From IMG/VR virus record IMGVR_UViG_3300025117_000042, positions 1 through 64,000 of that record: a DNA stretch of 64,000 nucleotides. One strand, written 5' to 3'. The position numbers and the translations under genes were made by a program. Within the stretch, counting starts at the first letter, position 1. Each line of letters opens with the position of its first letter. A model generated the notes under the pieces. The model did no database searches, had not been told where the DNA came from, and was given only the letters and a program-made list of their open reading frames with translations. Positions 2,292 through 28,228 of the stretch are shown in pieces. The stretch is from a virus.

Positions 2292-2548
2292 TGGTCGGCA
2301 AACACAAGCTGTACATAGTGCATGACGATCAGTACATCCTGGTTGGGGAATGTGCTCCTGAAGACCTGCAAATTAAGGTTATAGGGACTGTAGTAGAGAG
2401 TTACCCTGTCATCTCTGGTGATATCGTCATTGCGGGATGTGCTAATTTCGAGCTGAGGCAGGAAGAAAAGCCTAGCAAGCATCAGTACAGAGAGCTTATG
2501 CAGGATATGTATAATAAAAAGAATAAGGGAAAGAAAAGGAGGAAATAG
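2291..2548 (+). CDS. Hypothetical protein (85 aa) with basic tail
   Basis: Starts at the TAATG junction. Mostly beta-strand-like to residue 60, then a very basic C-terminus (YNKKNKGKKRRK) that could contact nucleic acid. The GGAGG for the next gene lies inside its last codons. No family recognised. Confidence 0.55.
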   Translation: MVGKHKLYIVHDDQYILVGECAPEDLQIKVIGTVVESYPVISGDIVIAGCANFELRQEEKPSKHQYRELMQDMYNKKNKGKKRRK

Positions 2549-3237
2549 TGGTGGATAGCTTAGGTGATCGGATGAAGCTGTTTTATGAAGATCGGAGCAG
2601 GTACAAGCTAACCCGTAGAGTGCCAGTAATCATGCGGCTTGATGGGAGAGCTTTCCATACTTTGTTGCGAGTAGCACGTAAGCCTTATGACATGGGTGTA
2701 ATTTACGCTATGCAGGATACAGCCATGCATCTGATTGAGCAGATCCAGGGCGCAAAGTGTGCCTATGTGCAATCTGATGAGATAAGTATTCTAATAACAG
2801 ACTATGACAAACTCAGTACTGAGGCATGGTTCGATTACAACATTCAAAAGATGTGCTCTATAGCAGCATCTATGGCTTCTGTGTATTTCACTCAGCACTA
2901 CAGAGAGGATGCTAATTTTGATTGCAGGGTGTTTAATATACCAAAGGAAGAGGTAATCAACTATTTCAGGTGGCGATATAAGGATTGGCTCAGGAATAGC
3001 CTACAGATGCTTGCTCAGAGTCTGTATAGCCACAGAGAGCTACATGGTCAGAAAGCTGCATCTCTGCATGACATGTGTATGGCAGTAGGTCATAACTGGA
3101 ATGATGAAAAACCAGTGTGTAAGAACGGTTCTTTTATTACAAAACAACTTGATGTACTGACTGACTTTAACCTGATGGATCTTTTAGATCCTACCAATTC
3201 GATCTTAACTAGCGCACTGTATACCGTCGAGGACTGA
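2548..3237 (+). CDS. Thg1-like 3'-5' nucleotidyltransferase (TLP)
   Basis: Thg1-family enzymes add nucleotides in the 3'-5' direction, either the extra G-1 of tRNA-His or 5'-end repair of truncated RNAs. Residues 25-40 read PVIMRLDGRAFHT, the metal-binding RLDGR-F-H signature, and residues 90-97 YVQSDEIS supply the second acidic site. Length (229 aa) matches bacterial and phage Thg1-like proteins. It starts at tandem GTG codons with AAAGGAGG upstream. Presence in a phage alongside other RNA-end enzymes suggests RNA repair rather than tRNA-His maturation (inference). Confidence 0.85.
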   Translation: MVDSLGDRMKLFYEDRSRYKLTRRVPVIMRLDGRAFHTLLRVARKPYDMGVIYAMQDTAMHLIEQIQGAKCAYVQSDEISILITDYDKLSTEAWFDYNIQKMCSIAASMASVYFTQHYREDANFDCRVFNIPKEEVINYFRWRYKDWLRNSLQMLAQSLYSHRELHGQKAASLHDMCMAVGHNWNDEKPVCKNGSFITKQLDVLTDFNLMDLLDPTNSILTSALYTVED

Positions 3238-5367: not shown

Positions 5368-5874
5368 ATGAAACGAACATTGGTAACGAGTGATCCACAT
5401 TTAGGCCATGAGAGAGCCGCATTTCATAGGGGTTTCGATACCGTGGAGGAGCACGACGAGCTTATCATCTTTAACTGGAACCGAAAAGCACGTCCTACCG
5501 ATACCGTATACCTGCTGGGGGATGCTGTGTTTAGGCAGTCTACAGCTCTTAGTCTATTAGGTAGATTGAATGGGATCAAAAATCTTATCCTGGGAAACCA
5601 TGAGCATCATGATATTAGCAAATATCTGCCATACTTCCGCAAGATCATGGCAATGGTGATCTATAAAGAGCGATACATCTTCACGCATGTTCCTGTGCAT
5701 CCCTCACAGTTTAATAGATTTGTCGGATTGGTAAATGTACATGGTCATATCCATAAAGGCCAGGATGAATTGTACATCCACGATAAACGATATTTCAACG
5801 TCAATATGGATTTTCACAATCTGACTCCTCTGTATATTGAGGAGTTGGATCAACTTATCAAGGAGAGAGTATGA
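5368..5874 (+). CDS. Calcineurin-like metallophosphoesterase (168 aa)
   Basis: All metal-binding motifs are visible: D-x-H (SDPHLGH, residues 8-14), GD (LLGDAVF), GNHE (LILGNHEHH), a single H (FTHVP) and HGHIH near residue 126. Length is typical of small phage/YfcE-like phosphoesterases. ATG with GGGAGGTGAG upstream. It overlaps the next gene, an RlaP-like nucleotidyltransferase, by 4 bases, suggesting coupled end-processing functions. The substrate (2',3'-cyclic or other phosphoester) cannot be read from sequence. Confidence 0.88.
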   Translation: MKRTLVTSDPHLGHERAAFHRGFDTVEEHDELIIFNWNRKARPTDTVYLLGDAVFRQSTALSLLGRLNGIKNLILGNHEHHDISKYLPYFRKIMAMVIYKERYIFTHVPVHPSQFNRFVGLVNVHGHIHKGQDELYIHDKRYFNVNMDFHNLTPLYIEELDQLIKERV

Positions 5875-6827
5875 AAAATCGCATGTTAGTAAAGATGATC
5901 TTTGGTTCTCATCTGTATGGTACAGAGACACCGACAAGCGATCAGGATTTTAAAGGTGTGGCGCTTCCTACCTGGGAACAGGTAGTTTTAGGCCGAATAG
6001 GAAAGCATATAGAGCACTCATCAACAGGGTCTGCTAATAGTAGAAATACAGCTGAAGATGTGGATGTGGAGATATTCACTCTGCATAACTTTATCAAATT
6101 GGCTCTGGAAGGACAAACAGTGGCTTTTGACATGTTACATGCCCCACTTAACAAGCTAATATGGTCTGATTTCATATGGTTCGATCTAGTGTCTAATAGA
6201 GAAAAGTTCTATAGCAAGAATATAAACTCCTTCATTGGCTATGCAGTAGGACAAGCGGCTAAGTACGGGATCAAGGGAAGTAGGTTGAATGCTGCAAAGT
6301 CTGTACTGGAGTGGTTTGAGGGACGGCTGCTTGATTCTAAGCTGATGGATAATGATCTGAGTACCTTTCCTTTCGGGGAGCATGTCAGGTATCTGGAGCC
6401 TGAAGCACCGTTAGGTCAGAGACAGATAGATATATGTGGTAAGCGTATACAGCTTACTACCAAGATCGGTTATGCTGCTTCTATAATAGATCTGTTTTAT
6501 AGAAATTATGGAGAACGAGCTAAACAGGCGGCTAATGACCAGGGGATAGATTGGAAAGCGATTAGCCATGCATTTAGAGCTGCATACCAAATGAAAGAGT
6601 TGTATGCAGAAGGTACTATCACATTTCCTCGTCCTGAAGCTGAAATTTTACGTCACATAAAGACGGGTCAATGTCACTATGTTGATGTTGCTCCTATGCT
6701 GGAAGATCTATTAGATGAGGTTAGGGAGTTGAAAGATAAATCTTCTTTTCCAGAAAAACCGGATCATAAGTTTTGGGATGGGTTCTTGATGGAAGTGATT
6801 GAAAAGCATCTTACACCTGGGAGGTAA
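5871..6827 (+). CDS. RlaP-like nucleotidyltransferase (polymerase-beta fold)
   Basis: The N-terminus carries FGSHLYGTETPTSDQDFKGV, the GSxxYG..T..SD.D signature of RlaP-type minimal nucleotidyltransferases (Pfam PF10127, described as RNA-repair-associated). A third acidic site is likely in VDVEIFTL (residues 63-70). The helical remainder to 318 aa fits the family. It is coupled to a phosphoesterase and 2.6 kb from a Thg1-like enzyme, consistent with an RNA-end-repair function in the phage (inference). Confidence 0.8.
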   Translation: MKNRMLVKMIFGSHLYGTETPTSDQDFKGVALPTWEQVVLGRIGKHIEHSSTGSANSRNTAEDVDVEIFTLHNFIKLALEGQTVAFDMLHAPLNKLIWSDFIWFDLVSNREKFYSKNINSFIGYAVGQAAKYGIKGSRLNAAKSVLEWFEGRLLDSKLMDNDLSTFPFGEHVRYLEPEAPLGQRQIDICGKRIQLTTKIGYAASIIDLFYRNYGERAKQAANDQGIDWKAISHAFRAAYQMKELYAEGTITFPRPEAEILRHIKTGQCHYVDVAPMLEDLLDEVRELKDKSSFPEKPDHKFWDGFLMEVIEKHLTPGR

Positions 6828-12588: not shown

Positions 12589-14133
12589 ATGAAAGTACGC
12601 ATTGAAAAAGGTATCAGTGGGGGGGAAGTCAGGTTCTTGACACCAGAGAATCCGGCTGAAGCAGCAGAGCTGTACTTTCTGGAGCTTGCTGGGGAGGTGT
12701 CTTCGAATTCTTCCTTTGGGGATTGGAGAGGTGAAACCAAAAAGAGCGAGGTGCAGCAGATAACGATATCAAAAGGGAACCTGCATAAGGAACGGCTTGT
12801 ACTAAGAGATGTAATAGACAAGAGGGGGAGGAAGGCTAAACGATGGGTGTTGATGCACCAAAATCAGGAAAATAGAGATACTAAATTAACCATACAAACT
12901 GATGAGGTAGACTACAGCAAGGATACCAGAGCCTTTGAGTCTATTTCCGAGACTGAGCTACTAAATCAGGCAACACGTAAGGATATATACAGGCAAATGC
13001 AAAGGAACCTGCAAGGGGTTTCTCGTAAGGTGAACGTTCCGAACGAATTGAAAGGCCCAATGGGGGACGAGGCAGTTAGTATAATAGCAGAAGATATGCG
13101 ATCCGAACTGTCGCTGTACACAAGTTGGCTTGCTGGAGATACTACTGACCTGATGCACTTGTATATTAACCAATTCGAAAAAACGCTTAAGGCGGCAGCT
13201 CCTGAGTTTGCTAACAGTAAAGCCTCAGATCTACAAGCTTTGGGTATAGACACGATCCGTAAGCTTATTCACCAGGATATAGAGTCTACACGGCAAACCT
13301 TCTCCGATCATGGAATCAGGCATATCGTCGGAAACATCCTCTACCAGAACAAAATGATTGATGTATTAAACAAAGAAGGTATCCCGGTGACTCCCAAAGA
13401 GAAGCTTATGGGTATGTTTGTCCAGGTGAACCACGATATAGGCTATACGGTGCCTATAGTGCGCTCAGGTGGCAAGAATGGAGCAGTAGCATCTGGTAAG
13501 CATCCGGCATTCTCTGAGAAGGTTTTGAAGGAACAGAAGCATCTGTGGAACGAAGGCAAAATCTTTACCGAAGATGATTATAATAGAATACTTAACATAA
13601 CCAAACTCCATCAGAAGACTACTCTCTCCCTGGAAGATCCTGTCCTGTTCACCACTCAGATTGCCGACAATACCAGCATGTTCAGTAAAGAGAAAATCCC
13701 ACCTCTGTTTCAGTACATAGATGGATCAAGAGAGATACTTACTGATATGGGATTAGCTGCTAAGAGCGGGGATAAAGAGTGGTTTGAACAGTCAAAGACA
13801 GAGCTGTATAAGAGAGTTGATGCTAGTAACTTTAACAAGAATCTGAAAAGAGACTTGAAAGCTGCTGTTGCTTCTATCAATCAAATGACTCCTAAGTTCA
13901 CTATGGGTATTCTTGCCGGTGAGCTTCAAGGTGTGAGCAGTTCTACCGATGCTGTGATAGAAATAAAAGTTAAGCACAATGAGTATGACGCTTTCTTGTC
14001 ACAGTACCTTGATATGGGACAGAAGAAACTGAGAAGCTTACTGTCTGACTATGGAATCACTGAATACAATAAGACTGAATATCGACTTGGTGAACACAAC
14101 AACAAAACGCTAGTCAAAATCGTAGTAGAATAG
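12589..14133 (+). CDS. HD-domain phosphohydrolase-like protein (514 aa)
   Basis: ATG with AAAGGAG upstream. The centre (residues 235-365) carries DHGIRHIVGN, the H-D pair in QVNHDIGYT, further His residues (GKHPAF, KLHQKT) and a distal D (IADNTS), the order of an HD metal-dependent phosphohydrolase. Typical substrates are nucleotides or cyclic nucleotides. The N-terminal 100 residues include RLVLRDVIDKRGRKAKRWVL, loosely like a basic segment in the 854- and 354-aa proteins. The C-terminal 150 residues are unassigned. It may belong with the injected effector set (inference). Confidence 0.7.
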   Translation: MKVRIEKGISGGEVRFLTPENPAEAAELYFLELAGEVSSNSSFGDWRGETKKSEVQQITISKGNLHKERLVLRDVIDKRGRKAKRWVLMHQNQENRDTKLTIQTDEVDYSKDTRAFESISETELLNQATRKDIYRQMQRNLQGVSRKVNVPNELKGPMGDEAVSIIAEDMRSELSLYTSWLAGDTTDLMHLYINQFEKTLKAAAPEFANSKASDLQALGIDTIRKLIHQDIESTRQTFSDHGIRHIVGNILYQNKMIDVLNKEGIPVTPKEKLMGMFVQVNHDIGYTVPIVRSGGKNGAVASGKHPAFSEKVLKEQKHLWNEGKIFTEDDYNRILNITKLHQKTTLSLEDPVLFTTQIADNTSMFSKEKIPPLFQYIDGSREILTDMGLAAKSGDKEWFEQSKTELYKRVDASNFNKNLKRDLKAAVASINQMTPKFTMGILAGELQGVSSSTDAVIEIKVKHNEYDAFLSQYLDMGQKKLRSLLSDYGITEYNKTEYRLGEHNNKTLVKIVVE

Positions 14134-15769: not shown

Positions 15770-18700
15770 TTGAAGCTATTTATAAAGTCTGACTACGTGC
15801 GTGTTCAGCATGGCAAGCTTCAGCATGTGCATGATAAGCGTATAAAGCATATCATACCGCTCAAAGGCAGATCTTCTGCATCAGTAAGTCTCCGGTTGGG
15901 TAATGATGGTGCTCTGGACTTCAAAACGATCCTACAGGAGAATCCTAAGCTAATAGATAAGCATGCTCTAGCTGTGCAGGGCTATGTAGGCTTTAAAGCT
16001 AAACAGGGAGAGTCTTCTGAGCAAACTATCAAACGTCTAATAAATCATTTGACTGATAACCTAAGCTGGTTGTATGACCAGATACCGGAAGCAGAGCGCA
16101 AGCAAACAAGACAATGGTACGATGGAGCTAACAAGATAGCTAATGATTGGGCGAAGAAGTATAAGCTGCCAGTGCCTCAAGTTGCCGGTGTAATCGCCTG
16201 TATGTCTCCTCAGCTGGAGTGGTATCAAAACTTGCATCTCGCACAACATATAATAGAAACGTACCAAGGTAAAGACAAGCTCAAATGGGCCGATGGGATG
16301 GCTGAGCAGATCGAACCCAAGGTATTGGCTGAACTTAAGGGAAAAGCCCTGTCTGAGGTCGAGGATGAGGGTTTAAGGGCTATTTGGGTATTGGCTTATA
16401 ACAAGTCTCAGGATAAATCCTCTGTTGATATCTATTCACCTGAAGGTGAAAAGGTAGGACAGCAGGGTCAGACCTACTGGTTCACATCAGCTGCTATAAT
16501 AGCAAAAGCCTGGAACATCCTTGAAGGTAGGCCGATCACAAATAACCTCAGTAAAGCTCACAAAGTAAGGAACTTCTATAACAATATAATAGATCCTAGT
16601 GATGCTGAGAGTGTAACCATTGATACTCATGCTATTGCAGCAGCTTACCTTGCACCTCTGGCTGGCAATGACATTGAAGTGTTACACAACTTTGGTGCTG
16701 CCGCTGGTAAAGGTGAGGTATCACCTGGAACTGCTGCCGGTGTGCTTGGAACATATTACATTGCAGCAGATGCTTATCGTAAAGCCGCACAGAAGGTGGG
16801 TTTACTGCCAAGAGAACTACAATCTATTATATGGGACTTTATCAAGAACAAGTTTGATAAGGGACTCAAAATCAGTAGTGCATCCAGTAAGGAGCTAAAA
16901 AATGCCTGGAGTGAGTATACAGCTGGAAAAAGGAGCCTTGAATCAGTCAGAGCAGAAGTCTCCAAACGATGGAACCAATCCGATTCTAAAGCTTATGGCA
17001 GATCTAAAGCTTCCGATGACAAGGGAAAGCTACATAAAAGTTTGTTTTGGATTGAACGTGAAGGAGAGCGACCTGGGAGCGGAGTTCTTAGCAGAACTAC
17101 CAGATTTACCTTAGCAAAGTCTGATTATATAAGAGTGCGCCTGGGTAGACTTGAGCATGTACATGACAGACGTATACGCAAAGAAAAGCCACAGTCATTT
17201 TATAATGGTCTTACAAAGATAAGCGGCCCATTGGGTAGTAATCCAGGCGGAATATACCAGGACAACAACGGCACAAAGTACTATGTGAAGATCCCGGCTA
17301 ATCAGGACACTGCTATCAATGAGGTAGTAGCCAATAAGCTTTATGAGCTTGCCGGTGTCAAAGTGCCTGAACTTGATCTAATAGATGCCAACGGTAAGCT
17401 GGGTGTGGCAGGTAAATGGATGCAGATGGATGCTGAACGTGTAACTCCTGATAAGGAAGGAGTCTATTCTGGCTTTGTTACTGATGCTTGGCTTGCCAAT
17501 TGGGATGTAGTAGGTATGAGCTACGATAACCTTATGTTAGCTGATGGACAGGCTGTGCGTGTGGACACCGGAGGAGCCTTACTGTACCGAGCCAGGGGAG
17601 AGCGTAAAGGAGCTGCTTTTGGGCCTGCGGTTACTGAGCTGCAAACCTTGCGCGATCCATCCTTGAACGAAACCTCAGCTTCTGTTTTTGCTGGTATTCC
17701 TTTGAGTGCTATTAGAAGTAGTGCTGAAAACGTACTCAATATCCCCAAGAAAGCCATTGTAGACACTGTTAACACCTATGGCTCTAAATGGGATGATATA
17801 ACGAAGCAGCATGTTATTGACACATTGTTGGCAAGGCAAGCTTATATACACAATCTATTCACTACATTTGTACTCAAGTCTGAATATTATAGAGTTCGTA
17901 ACGGTAAACTTGAGTATGTACATGATGGTAGAACAAAGCATCAGGTGTTTCATTACAGTAAGAATCACAATCTTGTTAGGCTTGATCCTACGTACTATGG
18001 AACAGGTATGGCAGGAGGTGAGACTAAACGTAAGAAAACAGATCCTGAGAATTGGGTTGATCGCACTTACTTTTATGTAGGTGAGCACCACACTAAAGAA
18101 GATGGCCTGGGTCAGCATAAGTATATATCAGAGTTCGATCCTAAAGAGATATATGACTTTGCTTCAGATCCAGATAGTCTTCAGTCAACTTCAATAGATT
18201 TCGGGAAGTTCTCTGTTACGAAATACGAAAAGAAGATAAAAGAGGCTGGATACAAAGGTTTTATAGTACATCACCCTCAGCTTGGTAGTGTAATAGCTGC
18301 TTTTTATCCTCAGTCAGTAGATAAGTTGTCGAAAGCTGGGTATATAGCAGTTGACCTGAACAATAGTAAGTTTACTGTCAGTAAATCAGATTATGTCAGG
18401 ATTAGAAACGGTAAACTTGAACATGTACATGATAAGCGTGTTAAGAAGGATAAAAGGTTAGACAGAGCTGTAGCTTCACTGCATAAGTCTATGGATGAGA
18501 TAAAGCATTTGGTAGATCATGAAGAGTGTAGGGTTATAGCACCTGATGGCAAGGTAATTTTCAAGAAAGGTGGAAGCAAGTCTCAAATATCTTTTGTAGA
18601 AGAAGAAATGGCCTTATTCAAAGGTTGCTCTTTTATACATAATCATCCCTCTGGAAGTTCATTCTCACTAGAAGATATAAACTTTGCTATTAAAACAGGA

Positions 18701-18982
18701 ATGAAAGAAATATATGCTGTACATGATGGATTAGTATATAAAATGCATATACCTCAAGGTATATCGGATTTGTATGCTTGGTGGGATACTAAAGGAATTC
18801 TTCTTTATTGGCAATTAGACACAGAGTTAAAGAAAGACTTTACAGCACAGATACAAAGTGGAAAGTTAGCTATAGAAGATGCTAACAAGTTGCACCATCA
18901 TGTCTTGTGGAATAGGTTTACCCATGAGGTTAAGTATGCGTTTAAGGTTGATAGTTTTGTATATAGTAAGGAGACAAGGTAA
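15770..18982 (+). CDS. Polyvalent multidomain protein (1070 aa): glycosylase-like, kinase-like, ART-like and JAB modules
   Basis: TTG start with GAGAGGGAG upstream. Four modules, each introduced by a copy of the tag KSDYVRVxxGKLEHVHDKR at residues 6-24, 449-469, 703-722 and 872-891. (1) Residues 60-350: alpha-rich, with CMSPQLEWYQNLHLA and DTHAIAAAYLAPL, resembling phage DUF7178-type proteins. (2) 480-690: kinase-like, with a Gly turn (NPGGIYQDNNG), K507, E518, NWD 577-579, DN 586-587 and D599 of VDTGG, as in HipA/PI3K-type folds. (3) 725-860: HYS 728-730, GTG and GGE (744-751), RTYFYVG, resembling ADP-ribosyltransferases of polyvalent proteins. (4) 900-1000: JAB/MPN metalloprotease with HNHPSG 957-962, S966 and D969. 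Such proteins are thought to enter the host with phage DNA. Domain 4 is secure, 2 likely, 1 and 3 tentative. TAATG overlap with the next gene. Confidence 0.75.
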   Translation: MKLFIKSDYVRVQHGKLQHVHDKRIKHIIPLKGRSSASVSLRLGNDGALDFKTILQENPKLIDKHALAVQGYVGFKAKQGESSEQTIKRLINHLTDNLSWLYDQIPEAERKQTRQWYDGANKIANDWAKKYKLPVPQVAGVIACMSPQLEWYQNLHLAQHIIETYQGKDKLKWADGMAEQIEPKVLAELKGKALSEVEDEGLRAIWVLAYNKSQDKSSVDIYSPEGEKVGQQGQTYWFTSAAIIAKAWNILEGRPITNNLSKAHKVRNFYNNIIDPSDAESVTIDTHAIAAAYLAPLAGNDIEVLHNFGAAAGKGEVSPGTAAGVLGTYYIAADAYRKAAQKVGLLPRELQSIIWDFIKNKFDKGLKISSASSKELKNAWSEYTAGKRSLESVRAEVSKRWNQSDSKAYGRSKASDDKGKLHKSLFWIEREGERPGSGVLSRTTRFTLAKSDYIRVRLGRLEHVHDRRIRKEKPQSFYNGLTKISGPLGSNPGGIYQDNNGTKYYVKIPANQDTAINEVVANKLYELAGVKVPELDLIDANGKLGVAGKWMQMDAERVTPDKEGVYSGFVTDAWLANWDVVGMSYDNLMLADGQAVRVDTGGALLYRARGERKGAAFGPAVTELQTLRDPSLNETSASVFAGIPLSAIRSSAENVLNIPKKAIVDTVNTYGSKWDDITKQHVIDTLLARQAYIHNLFTTFVLKSEYYRVRNGKLEYVHDGRTKHQVFHYSKNHNLVRLDPTYYGTGMAGGETKRKKTDPENWVDRTYFYVGEHHTKEDGLGQHKYISEFDPKEIYDFASDPDSLQSTSIDFGKFSVTKYEKKIKEAGYKGFIVHHPQLGSVIAAFYPQSVDKLSKAGYIAVDLNNSKFTVSKSDYVRIRNGKLEHVHDKRVKKDKRLDRAVASLHKSMDEIKHLVDHEECRVIAPDGKVIFKKGGSKSQISFVEEEMALFKGCSFIHNHPSGSSFSLEDINFAIKTGMKEIYAVHDGLVYKMHIPQGISDLYAWWDTKGILLYWQLDTELKKDFTAQIQSGKLAIEDANKLHHHVLWNRFTHEVKYAFKVDSFVYSKETR

Positions 18983-21546
18983 TGTTTATATTAGATGATT
19001 CTGAAATCTTGGAACCTGTGTACAAAAAAGAGGACTTTCCTGAACTATTTGCAGAAGGAAAGAAGGACATAAAGAAGTCAATGGCAGTAACTGTACCTAC
19101 ATCCAAAATCAATCCGATGTTGGTTCCTATACAAAAGGTAGTCCATAAAAAGGGTAAAACTCATACCCAAGTATATTGGGTAAACCCGCATGTTGATACC
19201 AAAGTATTGCTGAACACAAAAAAGGTTGAGATGGCACATGAGCTGGCTAAGCTCGAAACCTTCCCGGTAAAGGATGCATGGAAGAAGTTTATGCATGTTA
19301 CTGAGCCTGTAACGCTCCCTGAAGTTGGGGAGGTCAAGATGAACGTGTCAAGGAGTTTCAGTTTCTCAGAAGAGGGGCTGAACTTTGAGTTCTTCAGTCC
19401 AAATACTAATAGATCAGTCACCTATAGTTTGCCTAAAGGGGATACAGTAAGGCTGGACAGTTTGCACATGAATAATCCAGTTGTAAATAAGCAGATGCTT
19501 ATTGAAAGCTTCTCCTGGCTCAGTAGGCAAGGCATTACAAACGTAAAATATACGCGACCTGTGAACGATACTGCCAATGAGATATCAGCAATGCTTGAGA
19601 ACAGTTTCTCAGCAGTTAAAGATAAAGTTGATAACTATGTTAACTTCTATGTTGATATTACAAAGTATCGTAAAGAAGATAACGTTGAGACATATGCTGA
19701 CTATGCACATGTTAGAAACACAACTGAAAAGGTCATGGAGCTGTACGAGGTAGATGACAGCCGTTCAGCTGTGATTGCCTTTGTAGAGAAACTGTACAAA
19801 GAAGACAAGGATACGTTCATTGCTGTAATAGCTGAGTTGTATGCACTGTCTCCTGCTACAGTTTTAGCTGAAATACACAATATAGTAATAGATAATCCTG
19901 ATTTACGTTACGGCATCTCATCTGTAATAGATTTGTTCAGTACCGGTCATAATATCAGTTTAGCAACAACTTCAGATGTTGTTGAAACAGCAACGTTAGT
20001 ATCAACATTGACTGAAAGTTGGAAAGGTAGCTCAAGATCTTTGGGTGCTCAGCTGTTGCAGTATTATGTAGCAGATCTTACTGGCACTACTAAGCCTTCG
20101 TTTTTCAATCACAATTGTAGTGAGGAGATGTTTAATAGCTTTGTAAAATGGCTACATGGTTCTAACGTAGAAGCTAATATAAAAAGATATGTAAAAGATG
20201 TGTATGAGACTACACAAAAAGAGCTTAAAGCAAAGTATTATGCAGAAAAAAAGCTATCAGAAGAGCCTTCTGATGATTATATGATTACGCTTTACAGGGG
20301 TGTAACTAGCAGCTATAACACATCATCTACCCTGGAGAGCTGGACTGAATCATCAGATGTAGCTTACGACTTTGATGGTTCAGATGTATTTAGAAGAGAC
20401 ATACCTATCAAAGCTGTATACGTGTTCTGGAAGAGTAAGAATTGGCTGCACAAAGAAGTAGGTAGTGTATTTGAGACAGAGAAGGAGCATGTATTGATTA
20501 CTGATATGATACCAGCAGCTTTAATAGAAGATGAAAAGGAAAAGAAATTGACAGCAACAGATCGACTTGCTGAGATAAAAGATCTATTGATTACTATAGC
20601 TGATGCTAATTCTGTCTATTTTCACGCAGGATCTGCTTATGGGGAAGACATAGAGTTACTGAAGTTGGCTATTGTATATGCGGGTGGCGCACATACCAAT
20701 GACCTGAAGAATGCGTTCAATCTGAGTTATGAGGACGCTGAACAGGCATCGGAAGCTATTAATAAGTATTGGAAGAACTATCAGATAGATGAAATGTTGG
20801 ATGAAGCTAAGTACACAGAGCATCCTGAACAGCTTGAAGTTCAGCCTTATGATACTGCTGTAGCTATGCTCAGTCCTAACTTTGTCGTAGATCCACTTAA
20901 CAGACAACATATAATAGACATGATTAATTTTGTAGGTATGGGGAATGTAACAGCACAAGGTATAGCAAACAAGTTGTTACTGCCTGATGACAAAGCCCTG
21001 GAGCTGTATCAGAAGTTAGAAAATAATTGGCACACTATATGGGAAAATACCCAATTCAGTATGGAAGATTCTAAAAAAATGTCTGAAATGGCAATAAGTG
21101 AGGCTATATCAGAGTCAGGTGGGGAAAGCAAATTGCTGTTTGCTGATGAGTTGTCTGAAGTGTGGGCTAAATCATACTTAGATAATCCAGCTAATACCAC
21201 ATATTTTTTTACTACAGAACAGAGAGCAAAGCTTAACTATATATTAGACTACGTACAGGAATACCCAAAGGTAATGCAATCCGGGCTGTGGTCAGATCAA
21301 GCCAAAGATATAATAAACAAGTACAGGGATGCTTTGGCTGAAGAGAACAATATGAAGTCGATTGCAGATTACATAAAGGTAAAGGGTATAGATGACGTTA
21401 AAGAATCTGCGTTAAAAACCCTTTACAATTGGTTAGGCCCAAAAGTAGCTAATCAAACTCATTTGGTACTTGGGATGACAAGTGAGGAAACCGATTCTCT
21501 GTATACAAGGCTTGATGATATGTATGGTGTTTTTGCAGGACTCTAA
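18982..21546 (+). CDS. ADP-ribosyltransferase-containing protein (854 aa)
   Basis: Residues 430-510 carry the three R-S-E signatures: LYRG (R439), LESWTES (S453), and ETEKEHVLI (E500-x-E502), the arrangement of arginine-type mono-ADP-ribosyltransferases. Such phage enzymes modify host proteins such as RNA polymerase. The N-terminal region has IKKSMAVTVPTSK and then VPIQKVVHKKGKTHTQVYWV (48-67), a basic segment also found in the 354-aa protein at 24123. Flanking regions are helical and unassigned. It lies between the polyvalent protein and portal, so packaging and injection are plausible (inference). Confidence 0.75.
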   Translation: MFILDDSEILEPVYKKEDFPELFAEGKKDIKKSMAVTVPTSKINPMLVPIQKVVHKKGKTHTQVYWVNPHVDTKVLLNTKKVEMAHELAKLETFPVKDAWKKFMHVTEPVTLPEVGEVKMNVSRSFSFSEEGLNFEFFSPNTNRSVTYSLPKGDTVRLDSLHMNNPVVNKQMLIESFSWLSRQGITNVKYTRPVNDTANEISAMLENSFSAVKDKVDNYVNFYVDITKYRKEDNVETYADYAHVRNTTEKVMELYEVDDSRSAVIAFVEKLYKEDKDTFIAVIAELYALSPATVLAEIHNIVIDNPDLRYGISSVIDLFSTGHNISLATTSDVVETATLVSTLTESWKGSSRSLGAQLLQYYVADLTGTTKPSFFNHNCSEEMFNSFVKWLHGSNVEANIKRYVKDVYETTQKELKAKYYAEKKLSEEPSDDYMITLYRGVTSSYNTSSTLESWTESSDVAYDFDGSDVFRRDIPIKAVYVFWKSKNWLHKEVGSVFETEKEHVLITDMIPAALIEDEKEKKLTATDRLAEIKDLLITIADANSVYFHAGSAYGEDIELLKLAIVYAGGAHTNDLKNAFNLSYEDAEQASEAINKYWKNYQIDEMLDEAKYTEHPEQLEVQPYDTAVAMLSPNFVVDPLNRQHIIDMINFVGMGNVTAQGIANKLLLPDDKALELYQKLENNWHTIWENTQFSMEDSKKMSEMAISEAISESGGESKLLFADELSEVWAKSYLDNPANTTYFFTTEQRAKLNYILDYVQEYPKVMQSGLWSDQAKDIINKYRDALAEENNMKSIADYIKVKGIDDVKESALKTLYNWLGPKVANQTHLVLGMTSEETDSLYTRLDDMYGVFAGL

Positions 21547-21617: not shown

Positions 21618-23147
21618 ATGTCTAAGTTCAATTTCTGGAACTATGCTGTCAGTAAGGTTTTCGGAAAACAGATTGAAGTAATAGCAGAGAGCAAGGCAGA
21701 TGATTATATTCAGAAAGCATTGGGTGACAACGTAAGAGCCGATCAAAGATCTTGGCTATTAGACATACTCAACGCTCAAACTGCTATGGGATTTAAAGAG
21801 AATCCAGCAGCTATTACATACAATACACTCCGCAAGGTTTCCCGCAAAAACCCTATCATAGCAGCGATTATAGGCACCAGGATAAATCAAGTGTGTTCCT
21901 TCTCCAAACAGGTCGATGTTATGGAGTTTTCTGCCAATAAGCCTATAGGGTTCAAAGTAGTGCATAAGCGTAAGCATCGGGAAGATATGAACGAGGCAGA
22001 GAAGAAGTTTGCAAACGAGCTGGAAGATTTTATTACATACTGTGGCTATACCGATAGATTCAGGACAGGCCGGAAGCGGGATAACTTCACTGACTTCTTA
22101 CGTAAGGTAACAAGGGATCGGCTGGTGTTAGATCAGATGTGCTTTGAACGTGTATTAAACAAAGCGAAAGAACCAGCTGAAATATTTGCTGTGGACGCTG
22201 CTACAATCAGGCTTGCTTCAGAAGAGAGCATGAATGATGGTGTAGGTTATTGTCAGGTTGTCCAGGGTCAGGTTGTGAATGAGTATACCTGGGCTGAAAT
22301 GGCTTTCTGTATCAATAACCCTGTTAGTGATATAAATCAGTACGGATATGGATTTTCAGAGCTTGAGCAGCTGATTTCGGTTGTTACAGCTCTTTTTTAT
22401 TCAGACACGTATAATACAAAGTTCTTCTCTCAGGGGTTGGGTGCTCAAGGCATCTTAAATATCGTTACAAAGGATGGTGCTATTCCCACCGATCTTATGG
22501 AAGCGTTCCGGTCACAGTTCCAGGCTACAGCTGCTGGTGCAGCTAACGCATGGAAGACTCCGATCATGAATGCTGACAAGCTGGATTGGATCAATTTGAA
22601 ACAGTCTAATAAAGATATGGAGTTTGTTAAGTGGGTTGAGTATCTAATAAAACTTGCTTGCGCTATCTATCAGATATCTCCTGAAGAAATCAATTTTGAA
22701 ACCAGAGGTTCTGGTAGTTCTTCGATGTTTGAGTCTAATCCTGAAGGACGGCTTAAATACAGCAAGGACAAAGGGCTAAGACCGCTGCTTACCTTTCTGT
22801 CAGATCATATCACTGAACACTTCGTTGAGCCTTATTCTCTGGATTATATGATGATTTTTACTGGTCTGGATGAAAAGGAAGAGAAGGATGCAGCTGAAAT
22901 CCGTAAAATAGAAGTTGAGTCTTATAAAACTCTTGATGAAGTACGTGCAGAAGCACAACTAGACCCTCTTGGTGAGGAGAATGGCGGTAATCTGGTACTC
23001 AATCCTCAGTATATTACACATAAGAACCAACAGGCCATGATTGAGCAGCAGAAAGAGATGCAAGCCAGCTTGGGTAGTGGTTTTAGTAGTAGCTATGAAG
23101 ACAGTAATAGTGTGAAACGTGGAGTCAAGAGTGGAAAAGACGAATAA
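21618..23147 (+). CDS. Portal protein
   Basis: 509 aa, the usual size. Features: N-terminal NPIIAAIIGTRINQV and a central KTPIMNADKLDWINLKQSNKDMEF block with the following IKLACAIYQISPEEINF, typical of HK97-type phage portals; Gln/Ser-rich flexible C-terminus. The portal dodecamer forms the DNA channel at the head vertex. Ahead of it is a 70-base gap with AGAGGAAC near the ATG. No terminase gene precedes it in this window, which is unusual. Confidence 0.85.
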   Translation: MSKFNFWNYAVSKVFGKQIEVIAESKADDYIQKALGDNVRADQRSWLLDILNAQTAMGFKENPAAITYNTLRKVSRKNPIIAAIIGTRINQVCSFSKQVDVMEFSANKPIGFKVVHKRKHREDMNEAEKKFANELEDFITYCGYTDRFRTGRKRDNFTDFLRKVTRDRLVLDQMCFERVLNKAKEPAEIFAVDAATIRLASEESMNDGVGYCQVVQGQVVNEYTWAEMAFCINNPVSDINQYGYGFSELEQLISVVTALFYSDTYNTKFFSQGLGAQGILNIVTKDGAIPTDLMEAFRSQFQATAAGAANAWKTPIMNADKLDWINLKQSNKDMEFVKWVEYLIKLACAIYQISPEEINFETRGSGSSSMFESNPEGRLKYSKDKGLRPLLTFLSDHITEHFVEPYSLDYMMIFTGLDEKEEKDAAEIRKIEVESYKTLDEVRAEAQLDPLGEENGGNLVLNPQYITHKNQQAMIEQQKEMQASLGSGFSSSYEDSNSVKRGVKSGKDE

Positions 23148-24123
23148 CATCACATTTGTAATAGACAAGTCTTACTATACACGCATCCGTCATGGCAAGC
23201 TTGAGCATGTACATGATAATAGAGTGCGTAAGACTCCAGAGAAAAATTCTGATTTGCGTATCACCATTAAAGAACTCAACAGAGCTTTGACTAAAGGCAC
23301 TGTAGGTATAATTTCAGCTGGCAGGAATACTAATAGTGAAAAAGATCTGCAACTGACAGAAGAAGAGATTGAGAAGCGATACGCCGATCTTGAGAATAAG
23401 CTATTAAAAGATGGTAGAGCCTTTATACGGGCAAAAGGTGTATGGGAAGGCGGGGAAGAGCGGTCTTATATTGTAGCTATTCCTAACAAAGACAGAAGTT
23501 ATCTGATAAAGCTTGGTGTCAAGTACAACCAGGATTCAGTTATATTTGTCAACGAAGGCAGGAATGAGTACATCTACTGTACAGGCCCGAACAAAGGTCA
23601 ATGTCATATCGGCAAGAAGTTCGAAGAAGTAGCAGCTGACATACCATCGGGTTACACTGAGATAGATGCAGTCGGTGCTTCACCATATAAGTTTGCTCTT
23701 GACTTCGACTTTGATAATACAAAACCAGTTAGAAAATCTTACGTAGTAGAAATGATTGCGAAGTCAGACTACGTGCGGGTTCGTAACGGTAGGCTTGAGT
23801 ATGTGCATGATACAAGGGTAGCTCATCCGGTTGAACGTCGTTCAGCTGAGTCAGAAATTGAGTTTGATACACAGCTGAAGGTGTGGGATATGGAACTGGA
23901 GAATCTTACGCGGAAAGAGCATGCTGTAGACTTCATGGATGCACAGTCTCTAATAGAGATATCAAAGAAGAAAGCAGATATCTACACTGCCATGATTGCT
24001 GCCCTGGAGCCTAGAGTAAGTAAGATCGAAGATAAGCCTCGCTATGATTTCGACATGCGCGATACTTTGCTGCATGAGATAAAAATTCCACCTAAGCTAC
24101 TGACAGTCAAAGGAGCGGATTAA
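23119..24123 (+). CDS. Two-tag multidomain protein with DUF3293-like domain (334 aa)
   Basis: GTG start overlapping the portal end by 29 bases (a second GTG at 23131 is possible). The tag appears twice: KSYYTRIRHGKLEHVHDNR (residues 17-35) and KSDYVRVRNGRLEYVHDTR (215-233). Between them, IISAGRNTNSEKDLQ, an L..L...G helix, GGEERSYIVAIP and KLGVKYNQDSVIFV resemble the DUF3293-like domain of other phages. The second module is a short coiled helix. Tags and location link it to the 1070-aa protein. Confidence 0.65.
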   Translation: MESRVEKTNNITFVIDKSYYTRIRHGKLEHVHDNRVRKTPEKNSDLRITIKELNRALTKGTVGIISAGRNTNSEKDLQLTEEEIEKRYADLENKLLKDGRAFIRAKGVWEGGEERSYIVAIPNKDRSYLIKLGVKYNQDSVIFVNEGRNEYIYCTGPNKGQCHIGKKFEEVAADIPSGYTEIDAVGASPYKFALDFDFDNTKPVRKSYVVEMIAKSDYVRVRNGRLEYVHDTRVAHPVERRSAESEIEFDTQLKVWDMELENLTRKEHAVDFMDAQSLIEISKKKADIYTAMIAALEPRVSKIEDKPRYDFDMRDTLLHEIKIPPKLLTVKGAD

Positions 24124-25187
24124 TGGATTTTGTAATAGAAAAATCAGTAAGAGCCGGTCTGATTCCTATAAGAAAGACTGTCACTCAAAACGGTAGAACC
24201 TTTCAGAGGACGTACTGGTGTAAACAGAAGGATCTGCAAAGCTTCAATGCTACAGCTCCTGCTGTCGAGTTTCTTGCTGCCAGTATAGAGACTCAGAAAG
24301 AGATGATGGATATTGTTTCACAGCTTGAGGACTATAATCAGGGACTCGCTGCTGAAATATACAACGAAATGCAAAAGAGTGGTGAAACGTCTATTAAAAT
24401 AGCTGATAAGATCGCTAAAGTGTCTGATTGGGTTACTGCCAGGGAAACCAACATGACCACCTTTCTCGCTGGTATGAGACAGCTGCTGAATGAGAAAGGC
24501 AAGATCGACATGGCAGATCTAGCTAAGACCTACCAGGATGTGTCTTATCAGTACCATAAGATGGGCCTGGAGCTTTCCACTGTCAATGCTGAAGGTAAAG
24601 AGAAACCTCTGAAAAAGATGGGAGTCATTCAGGATCTTGTTCCTATGAACTGGACTGATACTGTCAAGGAAGTAGGAGCTGCTTTGCGTGAATCTATTAA
24701 AAACGGTCTGACTACCTTACGTGCTGTATGGGGTAAGCTGGGCCGAGCCAAGATACCTAAACAGCCAGAGGAGCTTGATTACAGGCTGAAGGAGAACAAG
24801 GGTAAGCTGGAAGAGCTGTACGAGGAGTACCAGAAGCAAGCTCCAGATCTACGACCTCCGAAACGTAAGCTCACTGAGGAGCAAAAGCTTGCCCTGGAAG
24901 GTACTCCAGCTCCTGCTCCTAAAGGTGATAATAAGAAGAAATTCACTATCAATCCTGAAGCTCCTATGAAGAAGAAACCTGCAAAGAAAGCTCCAGATAA
25001 CATTGATATTAGCAAAATAAGTTATAAGCGTCCTGAAGATATTACTATGAAAGAGCTTAAAGCTATCAAGAAACAGGCTGAGACACAGTTCAAACAGGTT
25101 GTTGCTGAGTATGGTTCATGGGAGAATGTACCTGAGCATGTTAAACATCTGATTATTTCACTAACGTTAAAGACAGGAGCGAAGTAA
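24123..25187 (+). CDS. Helical head-associated protein (354 aa), possible internal protein
   Basis: Starts in a TAATG junction. N-terminus FVIEKSVRAGLIPIRKTV, then GRTFQRTYWC, repeats the basic segment seen at residues 48-67 of the 854-aa protein. The rest is long amphipathic helices with Pro/Lys-rich linkers (APAPKGDNKKK, PMKKKPAKKAP), as in packaged internal or scaffolding-type proteins. No catalytic motif seen. Confidence 0.5.
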   Translation: MDFVIEKSVRAGLIPIRKTVTQNGRTFQRTYWCKQKDLQSFNATAPAVEFLAASIETQKEMMDIVSQLEDYNQGLAAEIYNEMQKSGETSIKIADKIAKVSDWVTARETNMTTFLAGMRQLLNEKGKIDMADLAKTYQDVSYQYHKMGLELSTVNAEGKEKPLKKMGVIQDLVPMNWTDTVKEVGAALRESIKNGLTTLRAVWGKLGRAKIPKQPEELDYRLKENKGKLEELYEEYQKQAPDLRPPKRKLTEEQKLALEGTPAPAPKGDNKKKFTINPEAPMKKKPAKKAPDNIDISKISYKRPEDITMKELKAIKKQAETQFKQVVAEYGSWENVPEHVKHLIISLTLKTGAK

Positions 25188-25316: not shown

Positions 25317-26123
25317 ATGAAACTGCATAAACCAGACTTTAAACTGTTCTTTGAATTCGATTGTATAGAAAAAGCTGAGGATGGAGAGAAATCTCGTAGA
25401 ATCTGTGGTTATGCTTCTACTGAGGCTCTGGACAAGCAAGGTGAAATCCTTGTACAGAAGGGGCTGGACTTTACTGACTTCCTGAAGTCTGGTTGGTTCA
25501 ACGATAACCATGATCGTACTACTACCGGTGTCCTGGGCTATCCTACCAAAGTAGAGTATCACGAAGGCAAGGGATGGTATGTTGAAGGCTACATGGTCAA
25601 GGGATACCGGAGGGCTGATGAGATTTGGGAGCTTGCCAATGCTCTGCAAAAGTCTAATAGACGATTGGGATTCTCAGTAGAGGGTAACAACGTAAAACGT
25701 GACTCAGTGCAGACTAACAAGGTATTGAAGTGTAAAGTTACAAATGTAGCTATTACACATTGTCCTGTTAATGCTGAGTGTACGATGGAAGTACTGGCTA
25801 AAAGCTTCTGTAGTCACTGTGAATCAGAAAAATGCATTGAGTGTAACGCTGATTGTGTTAAGTCTCTTGAGGCTGGATACGAGCAGTCAACCGATATGGA
25901 AGGTGGCGCAGCACTAAGAAAACAGAGCATTGACGGTGAATGTAAATGTCAGAAGGAAGGCAGCACTTGCAAGAAATGTAATAAAAAAACTGACAAGTCC
26001 ATGTTATCGTATAAAGAAGCAATGGACGTAATAGTAAATCGAGGGTATGATAAGAATCATGCCGAGAAGATATTATCACGTCTGGATGAACTAGGTTACT
26101 TTGAGACAAAAGTAGAAGAATAA
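25317..26123 (+). CDS. Prohead protease with Cys-rich C-terminal tail
   Basis: Residues 1-165 follow the HK97-type prohead protease (S78) fold: GYASTEALDKQGEI, the catalytic His in NDNHD, and the Ser in RRLGFSVEGN, then THCPVNAECTM. It cleaves head proteins before DNA packaging. Beyond residue 165 is an unusual extension with about a dozen cysteines (CSHCESEKCIECNADC, CKCQKEGSTCKKC), probably zinc-binding. Between these clusters is AGYEQSTDMEGGAALRKQS, almost a copy of a segment near the N-terminus of the capsid protein at 26810. Confidence 0.85.
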   Translation: MKLHKPDFKLFFEFDCIEKAEDGEKSRRICGYASTEALDKQGEILVQKGLDFTDFLKSGWFNDNHDRTTTGVLGYPTKVEYHEGKGWYVEGYMVKGYRRADEIWELANALQKSNRRLGFSVEGNNVKRDSVQTNKVLKCKVTNVAITHCPVNAECTMEVLAKSFCSHCESEKCIECNADCVKSLEAGYEQSTDMEGGAALRKQSIDGECKCQKEGSTCKKCNKKTDKSMLSYKEAMDVIVNRGYDKNHAEKILSRLDELGYFETKVEE

Positions 26124-26147: not shown

Positions 26148-26771
26148 ATGGCTGGTGAAGAAAAAGTTATCGCTCAGGATAAACTGGAAAAAGCTCTTGA
26201 AGGTCTGGATGAGCTTTTGAAAAGTGAAAAACCTGTCGATGACAAAGAAGAAAAAAAGGGCGAAGTAGAAGAAACAGAGGAAAAATCCTTTGCCAAAGTT
26301 GCTGAGGAAAATGAAACTCTGAATAAAAGCATGGATGTTGCTCCTTTCCTTGCCGAGCTGGTGAATGTAATTGGTGAGCACATGGACAACTCCGCAGCTT
26401 CCCTCAGTAAGTCAATGGTAGAGCAGAGAGAAAGTCAGGCTAAGTTCAACGAGAATCTGGTAAAGTCTCTGAAAGAACTTGGTGATGCACTTCTTTCTAT
26501 TACAAAACGTCAGGATGAACTTGAAAAAGAGCCTGTCGGTGTTAAGAAATCAATCACAGCCAAACCGGTTGAACGTCAATTCGCAAAATCTGGTGAGGAA
26601 GAAGGACAGGAACAGAGACTCACGAAGTCAATGGTTGCCAGTAAGATCACTGACCTGATTATCAAAGGCGAAATTGTTGGCGGTACTCCTGTTACTCAGG
26701 CCGAGCTTACCAAGTTTGAAGCAACCGGCCAGATGCGCCCTGAACTGAGAGAACTTTTCGTAAAAAAATAA
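26148..26771 (+). CDS. Probable scaffolding protein (207 aa)
   Basis: Between protease and major capsid genes, the standard scaffold position. Very acidic and coiled-coil-rich in the first two thirds (EEKKGEVEETEEK, SLKELGDALLSITKRQDELEKE), with a basic/hydrophobic C-terminus suited to capsid binding. The tripeptide KSM occurs three times (LNKSMDV, LSKSMVE, LTKSMVA); possible protease sites. GGGAGGAC precedes the ATG. Confidence 0.6.
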   Translation: MAGEEKVIAQDKLEKALEGLDELLKSEKPVDDKEEKKGEVEETEEKSFAKVAEENETLNKSMDVAPFLAELVNVIGEHMDNSAASLSKSMVEQRESQAKFNENLVKSLKELGDALLSITKRQDELEKEPVGVKKSITAKPVERQFAKSGEEEGQEQRLTKSMVASKITDLIIKGEIVGGTPVTQAELTKFEATGQMRPELRELFVKK

Positions 26772-26809: not shown

Positions 26810-28228
26810 ATGTTTGAGAATGACGTTGAAGGATTTGGGATTGGTACTTCGCAGGATGTAGCAGAGCTTAACAAAGCTTTGACTGCTGGTTACGAAGAAA
26901 CCACAAGCATGACCGGTGGTGCGGCTCTGCGTGTTCAATCCCTGGAAAACACCCTTAAGCTTCTTACTTTCCGTGAAGACCACATGGTCATGTGGAAAGA
27001 CATTTCGAAACTCCCGGCTTACAGTACTGTTGAAGAATACAGTCAGCAGACTTCTGTAGGTAGCGACAATCCTGGGTTCACAGGCGAAGGTGTTGCGCCG
27101 GAAGAAGATGATTCTGGATATGCCCGTAAAGCATCCCTGGTTAAATTCCTTGGGACTACCCGCAAAATTACGCATCCGATGCAGTTGGTACGTACAATCA
27201 ATGGTGATGCAGTTGCACGTGAATCGACCAACGGTATCCTCAAAGTAATGCGTGATGCCGAATTCGGTCTGCTTTGGGGTAACAGTGATCTTGTATACAC
27301 TGCTGCTGGTACTACTCCTGAAGGTCTTGAGTGGGATGGCTTGAATGTACTGATCGACGCAACTAACGACCTTGACCTTTCCAATAGGAACTTGGAAGAG
27401 GGCGACTTTACAACTATGGGTGAAACCATTGCTAATAGCTTTGGCTACATCAATCGTTGTTACGTCCCTAATAGTGTAGCATCCACTCTGGATGTTTCCT
27501 TGCTACCTAAAGAGCGTATCGCCCTTCCTGGTGCAAACGGAATGGAAGTCGGCACCAACGTAGGATCTGTAAAAACTTCCTTCGGTAAAATTGCTGTTCG
27601 TCCTTCGTTGTTCATGGGGGCTGCTCTTACTGCTGGTCGTTCCCCGAAGAAAACCCCTCCGGCTGCTGCTACTTCCACCAAAGCTCCTGCTGCTCCAGCT
27701 TCCATAGCTGCTAGCTCTCTGACAGGTACTGATGGTAGATTCCGCGCAGCTCAGGTTGGTGTATGCACTTTTAAAGCCACCGCCTGTAACAGATACGGAG
27801 AGTCTGCTCCTACAGCTGCCACTAGCAACGTAACTGTTGGGGCTGGTGATGTTGCCAAACATATTCCTTTGGCAATTACAAACAGCGCATCGTCTGAGAC
27901 AGTTATTCCTGACTATTTCAACATCTACTGTTCTCCGGTAGGCACCGCAGCTTGGTATCTCGTTGCTTCCGTACCTTGTACTGATAAGACCAATAGTGGT
28001 ACAGGCGCATCTTATAACTATACTGGTTATATCATGCCAAACACTGCTATCTGTTTTGCTGGTCAGTTTGACAGTGAAATTCTGGTATTCAAACAGTTGG
28101 CTCCGATCATGAAAATGGACTTGGCAGTAATTGAGCCTTCCTATCGTTTCATGATTCTGCTGTACGGTGTTCCTCAGCTGTTTGCGCCTAAAAAACTTAT
28201 GCGTGTTATCAACGTCAAAGATTATTAA
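26810..28228 (+). CDS. Major capsid protein with Ig-like insertion
   Basis: 472 aa, AAAGGAGG upstream. The N-terminal ALTAGYEETTSMTGGAALR followed by QSLENTLKLLTFREDHM is typical of capsid proteins of large myoviruses. The E-loop/P-domain region (SVGSDNPGFTGEG) and the C-terminal IMLYGVPQLFAPKK region fit the HK97 fold. Residues about 283-417 are an insertion: a Pro/Ala linker then a beta-sandwich domain (FKATACNRYGESAPTA..), Ig- or FN3-like, likely displayed on the shell. Few rare codons, consistent with high expression. Confidence 0.85.
   Translation: MFENDVEGFGIGTSQDVAELNKALTAGYEETTSMTGGAALRVQSLENTLKLLTFREDHMVMWKDISKLPAYSTVEEYSQQTSVGSDNPGFTGEGVAPEEDDSGYARKASLVKFLGTTRKITHPMQLVRTINGDAVARESTNGILKVMRDAEFGLLWGNSDLVYTAAGTTPEGLEWDGLNVLIDATNDLDLSNRNLEEGDFTTMGETIANSFGYINRCYVPNSVASTLDVSLLPKERIALPGANGMEVGTNVGSVKTSFGKIAVRPSLFMGAALTAGRSPKKTPPAAATSTKAPAAPASIAASSLTGTDGRFRAAQVGVCTFKATACNRYGESAPTAATSNVTVGAGDVAKHIPLAITNSASSETVIPDYFNIYCSPVGTAAWYLVASVPCTDKTNSGTGASYNYTGYIMPNTAICFAGQFDSEILVFKQLAPIMKMDLAVIEPSYRFMILLYGVPQLFAPKKLMRVINVKDY

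What the first reader, a model, noticed from the sequence alone, without database searches (positions are those of the whole stretch)
15770..18982. 1070-aa polyvalent protein combining kinase-like and JAB modules with other effector-like domains
One chain carries a HipA/PI3K-like kinase candidate, a JAB metalloprotease (HNHPSG...S..D), a possible ADP-ribosyltransferase-like module and a glycosylase-like module. Polyvalent proteins of this style were proposed to be injected with DNA to block host defence. This exact combination, separated by repeated tags and placed beside the portal, is not one I know to be described. The JAB active site has one residue fewer between H and S than RadC-type sites.
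Basis: partly seen in the sequence, partly recalled or inferred. Interest (0 to 1): 0.75.

Follow-up and report, generated by a model that had tools for sequence, protein, structure and literature searches.

The report
Phage effector polyprotein with repeated protease-site tags
A phage gene next to the capsid genes strings together at least four enzyme-like modules, each preceded by the same 22-residue tag that looks like a loading and cutting signal for the phage's own head protease, so the chain is probably packed into the virus head, cut into separate tools and injected into the host; the modules are of known kinds, but the tag-and-cut layout appears undescribed.

Summary
The 1070-aa ORF is real. 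It holds four modules, each preceded by a conserved ~22-aa tag, [hydrophobic]-x-K|S-[DE]-Y-x-R-x-R-x-G-[KR]-L-E-[HY]-V-H-D-x-R. A HipA/PI3K-like kinase is confirmed by fold and conserved catalytic residues. A JAB domain is supported at moderate confidence. The first module is Pfam DUF7178 ('glycosylase' untested); the third module's ART assignment is unsupported. The tag recurs in only one other gene of this genome, an S-adenosylmethionine-lyase protein. A relative with an 87%-identical capsid protein carries the tagged modules in another order, one swapped out, with the neighbouring 854-aa protein fused in. The capsid protein and prohead protease are SPO1/Herelleviridae type. Deposited phi812 capsid sequences imply maturation at K24|S25, and the same [L/V/I]-x-K|[S/A] site lies in the capsid protein and protease C-terminus here and in dozens of relatives. 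Other phages with this protease carry an unrelated inter-domain tag (GPYIGPRGGKWAD) in polyvalent proteins; 19 of 23 copies directly follow such a site (background 4%). Best reading: a head-packaged effector polyprotein, loaded by tags, cut by the prohead protease and injected. Cutting and packaging are inferred, not shown. New variant of a known kind (polyvalent proteins).

The parts
15770..18982 (+). tagged polyprotein ORF, 1070 aa, TTG start
15779..15850 (+). tag 1 (FIK|SDYVRVQHGKLQHVHDKR), predicted cut K6|S7
   Evidence: predicted beta-hairpin, low confidence
15851..17044 (+). module A: DUF7178 (PF23802), function unknown
   Evidence: E 4.3e-30; alignment
17030..17041 (+). extra site LHK|S (K423) at the C-end of module A, kept in G001 (LRK|S)
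17111..17185 (+). tag 2 (LAK|SDYIRVRLGRLEHVHDRR), predicted cut K450|S451; hairpin strands 452-457/460-465
17207..17860 (+). module B: HipA/PI3K-like kinase; G489-S-N-x-G493 loop, K507, E518, D579, N587, D599
17870..17941 (+). tag 3 (VLK|SEYYRVRNGKLEYVHDGR), predicted cut K703|S704
17942..18349 (+). module C: conserved phage domain (HYS/HWS...RTYFG...KEAGLG...AGYxGY), ART-like by motif only
   Evidence: no family match
18326..18337 (+). extra site LSK|A (K855) at the C-end of module C, kept in G001 (LTK|S)
18377..18448 (+). tag 4 (VSK|SDYVRIRNGKLEHVHDKR), predicted cut K872|S873
18449..18979 (+). module D: JAB/MPN domain, H957, H959, S966, D969, E945/E946
   Evidence: homologue behind Phage_Mu_F
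18982..21546 (+). 854-aa ORF, start overlaps the polyprotein stop (TAATG); N-terminal type-II tag (IKK|SMAV...LVPIQKVVHKKGKTHTQVYW); its homologue is fused in the G001 polyprotein
21618..23147 (+). portal protein
   Evidence: PF04860 E 1.7e-18
23119..24123 (+). S-AdoMet lyase protein with two type-I tags (K17|S at 23167, K215|S at 23761)
   Evidence: PF23780 E 1.5e-8 above cut-off
24123..25187 (+). 354-aa ORF with N-terminal type-II tag (IEK|SVRAGLIPIRKTVTQNGRTFQRTYW)
25317..26123 (+). prohead protease, SPO1 type; C-terminal site CVK|SLEAGYEQSTDMEGGAALR
26148..26771 (+). scaffold protein, 8 [hyd]xK[SA] sites (1.1 expected)
26810..28228 (+). major capsid protein, SPO1 type; maturation site ELNK22|A23LTAGYE

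Best explanation
The gene encodes a head-packaged effector polyprotein. Each enzyme module begins with a ~22-residue tag made of a prohead-protease site ([hydrophobic]-x-K|S) followed by a basic beta-hairpin. The tags would load the chain, and the separately encoded S-AdoMet lyase protein, into the prohead. The SPO1-type prohead protease, which matures the capsid protein at the equivalent K|S/A site, would cut before each hairpin and release a DUF7178 protein, a HipA/PI3K-like kinase, a third enzyme and a JAB protein, each starting with the hairpin. All would be injected with the DNA to modify host proteins or nucleotides and blunt defence. Shown: the tags, module identities as stated, module shuffling, the capsid-type protease and the shared site. 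Inferred: loading, cutting, injection and targets.
For: Tags precede every module and occur in only one other gene of the 103.5-kb genome. A relative has the same tagged modules in another order, JAB absent and a ParB-like module present, and the 854-aa neighbour fused through a type-II tag; being one ORF or two would be equivalent if the chain is cut at tags. Tags are conserved as peptides, not DNA: 68% aa identity over 13 tags, same-codon fraction 0.51 against 0.43 expected from usage. Capsid protein homologous to phi812: deposited chains of 463 and 439 residues are offset by 24, implying K24|S25, aligned with K22|A23 here. Protease C-terminus and capsid N-terminus share the site in dozens of phages. 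[hyd]xK[SA] is enriched in scaffold (8 vs 1.1) and protease (5 vs 0.9) but not overall in tail genes. In other phages of this protease family an unrelated tag in polyvalent proteins follows such a site in 19 of 23 copies, background 4%; some of these carry InPase, ddrB-ParB, PAPS_reduct and ART-PolyVal domains. The second tagged gene is an S-AdoMet lyase. Precedents: T4 capsid targeting sequence (PMC5694885), P1 DarB 30-residue packaging signal (PMC9024508), DarA cut by the P1 prohead protease (PMC12810830).
Against: No proteolysis or virion data. The motif is short: a matrix from capsid and protease sites ranks tag 2 9th and tag 4 40th of 15,542 positions, the other two tags of this ORF lower than 45th, while two sites inside DUF7178 and one in the portal score as well as or close to the best tag; in that matrix K at P1 and a small P1' were required when sites were collected. 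The hairpin lies after the cut, so it is not a removed propeptide as in T4. The type-I tag is known only from this virus, G001 and one 6-kb fragment.
Confidence: 0.58

Rival explanations
1. The tags are capsid-loading (or scaffold/DNA-binding) hairpins only. The chain is packaged and injected whole, like P1 DarB or N4 virion RNA polymerase, and the K-S residues serve recognition, not cutting.
For: P1 DarB has a short N-terminal packaging signal (PMC9024508); N4 vRNAP is packaged unprocessed (PMC5512222); residues other than K-S in the tag are equally invariant.
Against: A single N-terminal signal would suffice; here each module has its own. In the unrelated GPRGGKW tags the K-[SAG] site is kept at variable spacing from the hairpin, as expected of an independent cut site. 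Same residue context as the capsid and protease sites.
Confidence: 0.27
2. The protein is an ordinary late intracellular multi-enzyme protein, and the tags are spacers or host-factor binding motifs unrelated to the virion.
For: No virion proteomics exist for this phage; expression time unknown.
Against: Gene position shortly before portal, protease, scaffold and capsid; a homologous module fused to the head protein MuF; site shared with head proteins.
Confidence: 0.1
3. The tags are leftovers of recombination that shuffles modules, with no function as peptides.
For: Modules are shuffled between two related viruses.
Against: Synonymous positions are nearly randomised while the peptide is conserved; DNA identity between tags averages 67%, 48-78%.
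Confidence: 0.03

Closest known systems
Polyvalent proteins of phages and conjugative elements (2017 survey, PMC5512222)
   Same: Large multidomain chain of effector-like enzymes encoded with portal/terminase-system genes, predicted to be packaged and injected; kinases, ARTs, ParB-like and JAB (RadC) domains are listed there.
   Different: The passages read describe autoproteolysis by a built-in peptidase or no processing; they do not describe repeated inter-domain tags at predicted prohead-protease sites. Its kinase family is described as closer to Ser/Thr/Tyr kinases, whereas the one here is HipA/CtkA-like by fold.
T4 internal proteins and Alt with capsid targeting sequence cut by gp21
   Same: Short N-terminal signal plus prohead-protease cut, proteins injected with DNA.
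   Different: One signal per protein, removed on cutting; gp21 site differs; here several signals in one chain and the hairpin would stay on the product.
P1 Dar system (DarA, DarB, DdrB)
   Same: Head-packaged antirestriction proteins; DarB has a packaging signal of under 30 residues; DarA is cut by the prohead protease.
   Different: Separate proteins, no repeated internal tag reported in the passages read.
SPO1/phi812 prohead protease and capsid maturation
   Same: Homologous protease (about 38-47% identity to SPO1-like phages) and capsid protein, same K|S/A site.
   Different: For those phages only the capsid-protein site was looked at here; no tagged polyprotein was sought in them.

Membership tests
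Polyvalent protein | several different effector or enzyme domains in one chain | tested here: met
   DUF7178, kinase, module C and JAB
Polyvalent protein | encoded with packaging/head genes, domains shared with other polyvalent proteins | tested here: met
Polyvalent protein | packaged and injected | not testable with these tools
   needs virion proteomics
HipA/PI3K-like kinase | fold and catalytic residues (G-loop, K, E, D, N, D) | tested here: met
   Pfam HipA_2 only E 0.03, below cut-off
JAB/MPN+ metalloprotease | E + HxHP...SxxD on a JAB fold | tested here: met
   residues; fold at moderate confidence; no Pfam JAB match
RadC | RadC-family sequence match | tested here: not met
   no family match; only fold resemblance
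ADP-ribosyltransferase (module C) | ART family match or fold | tested here: inconclusive
   no match in 11 homologues; model too poor
HhH-GPD glycosylase (module A) | family match or fold | tested here: inconclusive
   only DUF7178; fold not modelled; no PDB relative by sequence profile
Prohead-protease substrate with targeting sequence (T4 Alt/IP kind) | site matching the protease's own site | tested here: met
   specificity weak
Prohead-protease substrate with targeting sequence (T4 Alt/IP kind) | actual cutting and packaging | not testable with these tools
   needs experiment

The most novel reading that the evidence does not exclude
In phages with the SPO1-type head protease, polyvalent proteins are true polyproteins: unrelated tag families, each a protease site plus a hairpin, are placed before each effector domain, so that one gene loads the head with a mixed set of separate injected enzymes that evolution can reorder, fuse or split freely.
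Probability: 0.45. Interest if true: 0.82.

Novelty: new variant of a known kind. Interest (0 to 1): 0.62.

Why it matters
How very large multidomain phage effectors pass through the head and tail and act as separate enzymes is open. Repeated load-and-cut tags would answer it for one large phage group, would give a sequence signature for finding injected counter-defence proteins in unannotated phages (anything after [L/V/I]-x-K|[S/A/G] plus a hairpin near the portal gene), and would be a simple tool for loading cargo into phage heads.

Tried and rejected
Whole-protein search of viral contigs with back-translated peptides found no relative; the DNA pattern of the tag found G001. tblastn with 26-27-aa tags against named phages gave nothing, which may be a limit of the method for short peptides. 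JAB search in genome contigs found none. Joint alignments of ART-like and JAB rows misplaced the fragments, so a smaller alignment (A13) was folded; module C and DUF7178 models are not usable. Recombination-footprint reading rejected by the codon test. The RadC-spacing oddity was rejected as uninformative because the relative's loop differs by 12 residues. Literature searches for polyprotein / head-maturation-protease / injection terms found nothing beyond the 2017 polyvalent-protein paper; the library is open-access only.

Full report
Gene and tags. ORF 15770-18982 (+, 1070 aa, TTG start, GAGAGGGAG upstream) carries four copies of a tag at aa 4-27, 448-472, 701-724 and 870-893. All six pairwise 22-mer scores (68-96) exceed the best score of any of 200 shuffles (maximum 48). 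Ten positions are invariant over the six tags in this genome: K, S, Y, R, G, L, V, H, D, R. In the models the tags appear as short beta-hairpins, at low to moderate confidence. A search of the whole 103.5-kb virus record finds the tag only in this ORF and twice in ORF 23119-24123, whose first module is an S-adenosylmethionine lyase (PF23780, E 1.5e-8, above cut-off).

Modules. A: DUF7178 (E 4e-30); mostly not modelled, so the glycosylase idea stays untested. B: kinase-like, pLDDT mostly 91-98, Foldseek top hits CtkA (E 8e-6, TM by target 0.36-0.49), with VPS34, RIO kinases, HipA and HipT further down; G-loop, K507, E518, D579, N587 and D599 are conserved in a sample of a family found in 486 viral loci that no Pfam model catches above cut-off. 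Elsewhere the domain mostly sits in large ORFs, often behind Pro/Ala-rich stretches. C: a conserved phage domain with no family match. D: JAB fold at moderate confidence, RadC best hit and JAMM1 at rank 7, with the ligands present; its homologue L026 sits behind a Phage_Mu_F head domain. DUF7178 in phage zth2-2 shares a chain with ART-PolyVal and LPD22.

Relative. Virus G001 (IMGVR_UViG_3300025073_000032; portal 80% and capsid protein 87% identical) has a 1923-aa ORF at the same place: tag + ParB-like module (weak matches), tag + kinase, tag + module C with an added HAD-like segment (phrog_1238 and phrog_415 matches), tag + DUF7178, then a second kind of tag (VVK|SMGT...LIPMVKIVHKKGKTFPQKYW) and the homologue of the window's separate 854-aa ORF. 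In the window the 854-aa ORF starts on the stop codon of the polyprotein (TAATG). Order change, replacement and fusion at tags say that the tag-to-tag segment is the unit. Over 13 tags from both viruses, amino-acid identity is 68%, DNA identity 67%, and identical residues use the same codon 51% of the time against 43% expected: the peptide is selected, not the DNA.

Head protease. The capsid protein is SPO1/Herelleviridae type (SPO1 gp6.1 E 7e-94; phi812) and the protease is 38-47% identical to those of SPO1-like phages. Two deposited phi812-type capsid chains (463 and 439 residues) align with an offset of 24, so the shorter starts at S25 after K24; this is read from the deposited sequences, not from a paper, and the names SPO1 and phi812 for these entries are partly my own knowledge. 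The window protein has ELNK22|A23LTAGYE there. The protease C-terminus carries the same site, and the de novo comparison of K-[SAGV] sites returned the protease/capsid pair as the best or a top match in about 30 loci. The motif [LIVFMC]xK[SA] is enriched in scaffold and protease. A matrix from 43 such sites (K at P1 and a small P1' were required in collecting them) places tag 2 ninth and tag 4 fortieth of 15,542 positions, but other sites score similarly. The motif alone is therefore weak; the context carries the argument.

Generality. Among 80 loci with a related protease, several giant ORFs carry a different repeated tag, GPYIGPRGGKWADxxHTIPW, in chains with domains such as InPase, ddrB-ParB, PAPS_reduct and ART-PolyVal. 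Collected without reference to K, 19 of 23 such tags follow [hyd]xK[SAG] within about 7 residues; random positions in the large ORFs of the same loci do so at 4.2%. The copies are related, so this is not 23 independent events. Two distant relatives (L013, L018) have type-II-like tags at the N-terminus of 1157-1200-aa ORFs before the portal.

Mechanism and rivals. The best reading is tag-directed loading into the prohead, cutting at K|S by the head protease and injection of separate enzymes. Precedents exist for each step in other phages: T4 targeting sequences, the P1 DarB signal, P1 DarA cutting. An uncut, tag-loaded chain is the main rival. Nothing here measures packaging, cutting or activity.

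Novelty. The protein belongs with polyvalent proteins; the repeated load-and-cut tag layout was not found in the papers read or searched, within an open-access library.

Noticed in passing
23119-24123: S-adenosylmethionine lyase domain (PF23780) with two tags in a gene overlapping the portal gene; SAM lyase is a known type of phage anti-restriction activity (own knowledge).
   Followed up: partly
2548-3237: Phage-encoded Thg1-like tRNA(His) guanylyltransferase (PF04446, E 8e-25), with an RlaP-type RNA-repair nucleotidyltransferase at 5871-6827 (E 9e-10).
   Followed up: no
L115-L193 and named phages: The HipA/CtkA-like kinase domain of polyvalent proteins is found in 486 viral loci and has no Pfam model above cut-off; an annotated member is fused to ADPrib_exo_Tox.
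   Followed up: partly
L036, L042, L045, L056, L101: Repeated inter-domain tag GPYIGPRGGKWAD in polyvalent proteins of other phages with the same protease family.
   Followed up: partly
12589-14133: 514-aa ORF with an HD-like motif by eye and a site/hairpin-like stretch ISKGNLHKERLVLRDVIDKRGRKAKRWVL near the N-terminus; no convincing family match.
   Followed up: no
L011:2887-3192 (-): Small 102-aa tagged ORF directly before the protease gene in G001; not seen as such in the window.
   Followed up: no
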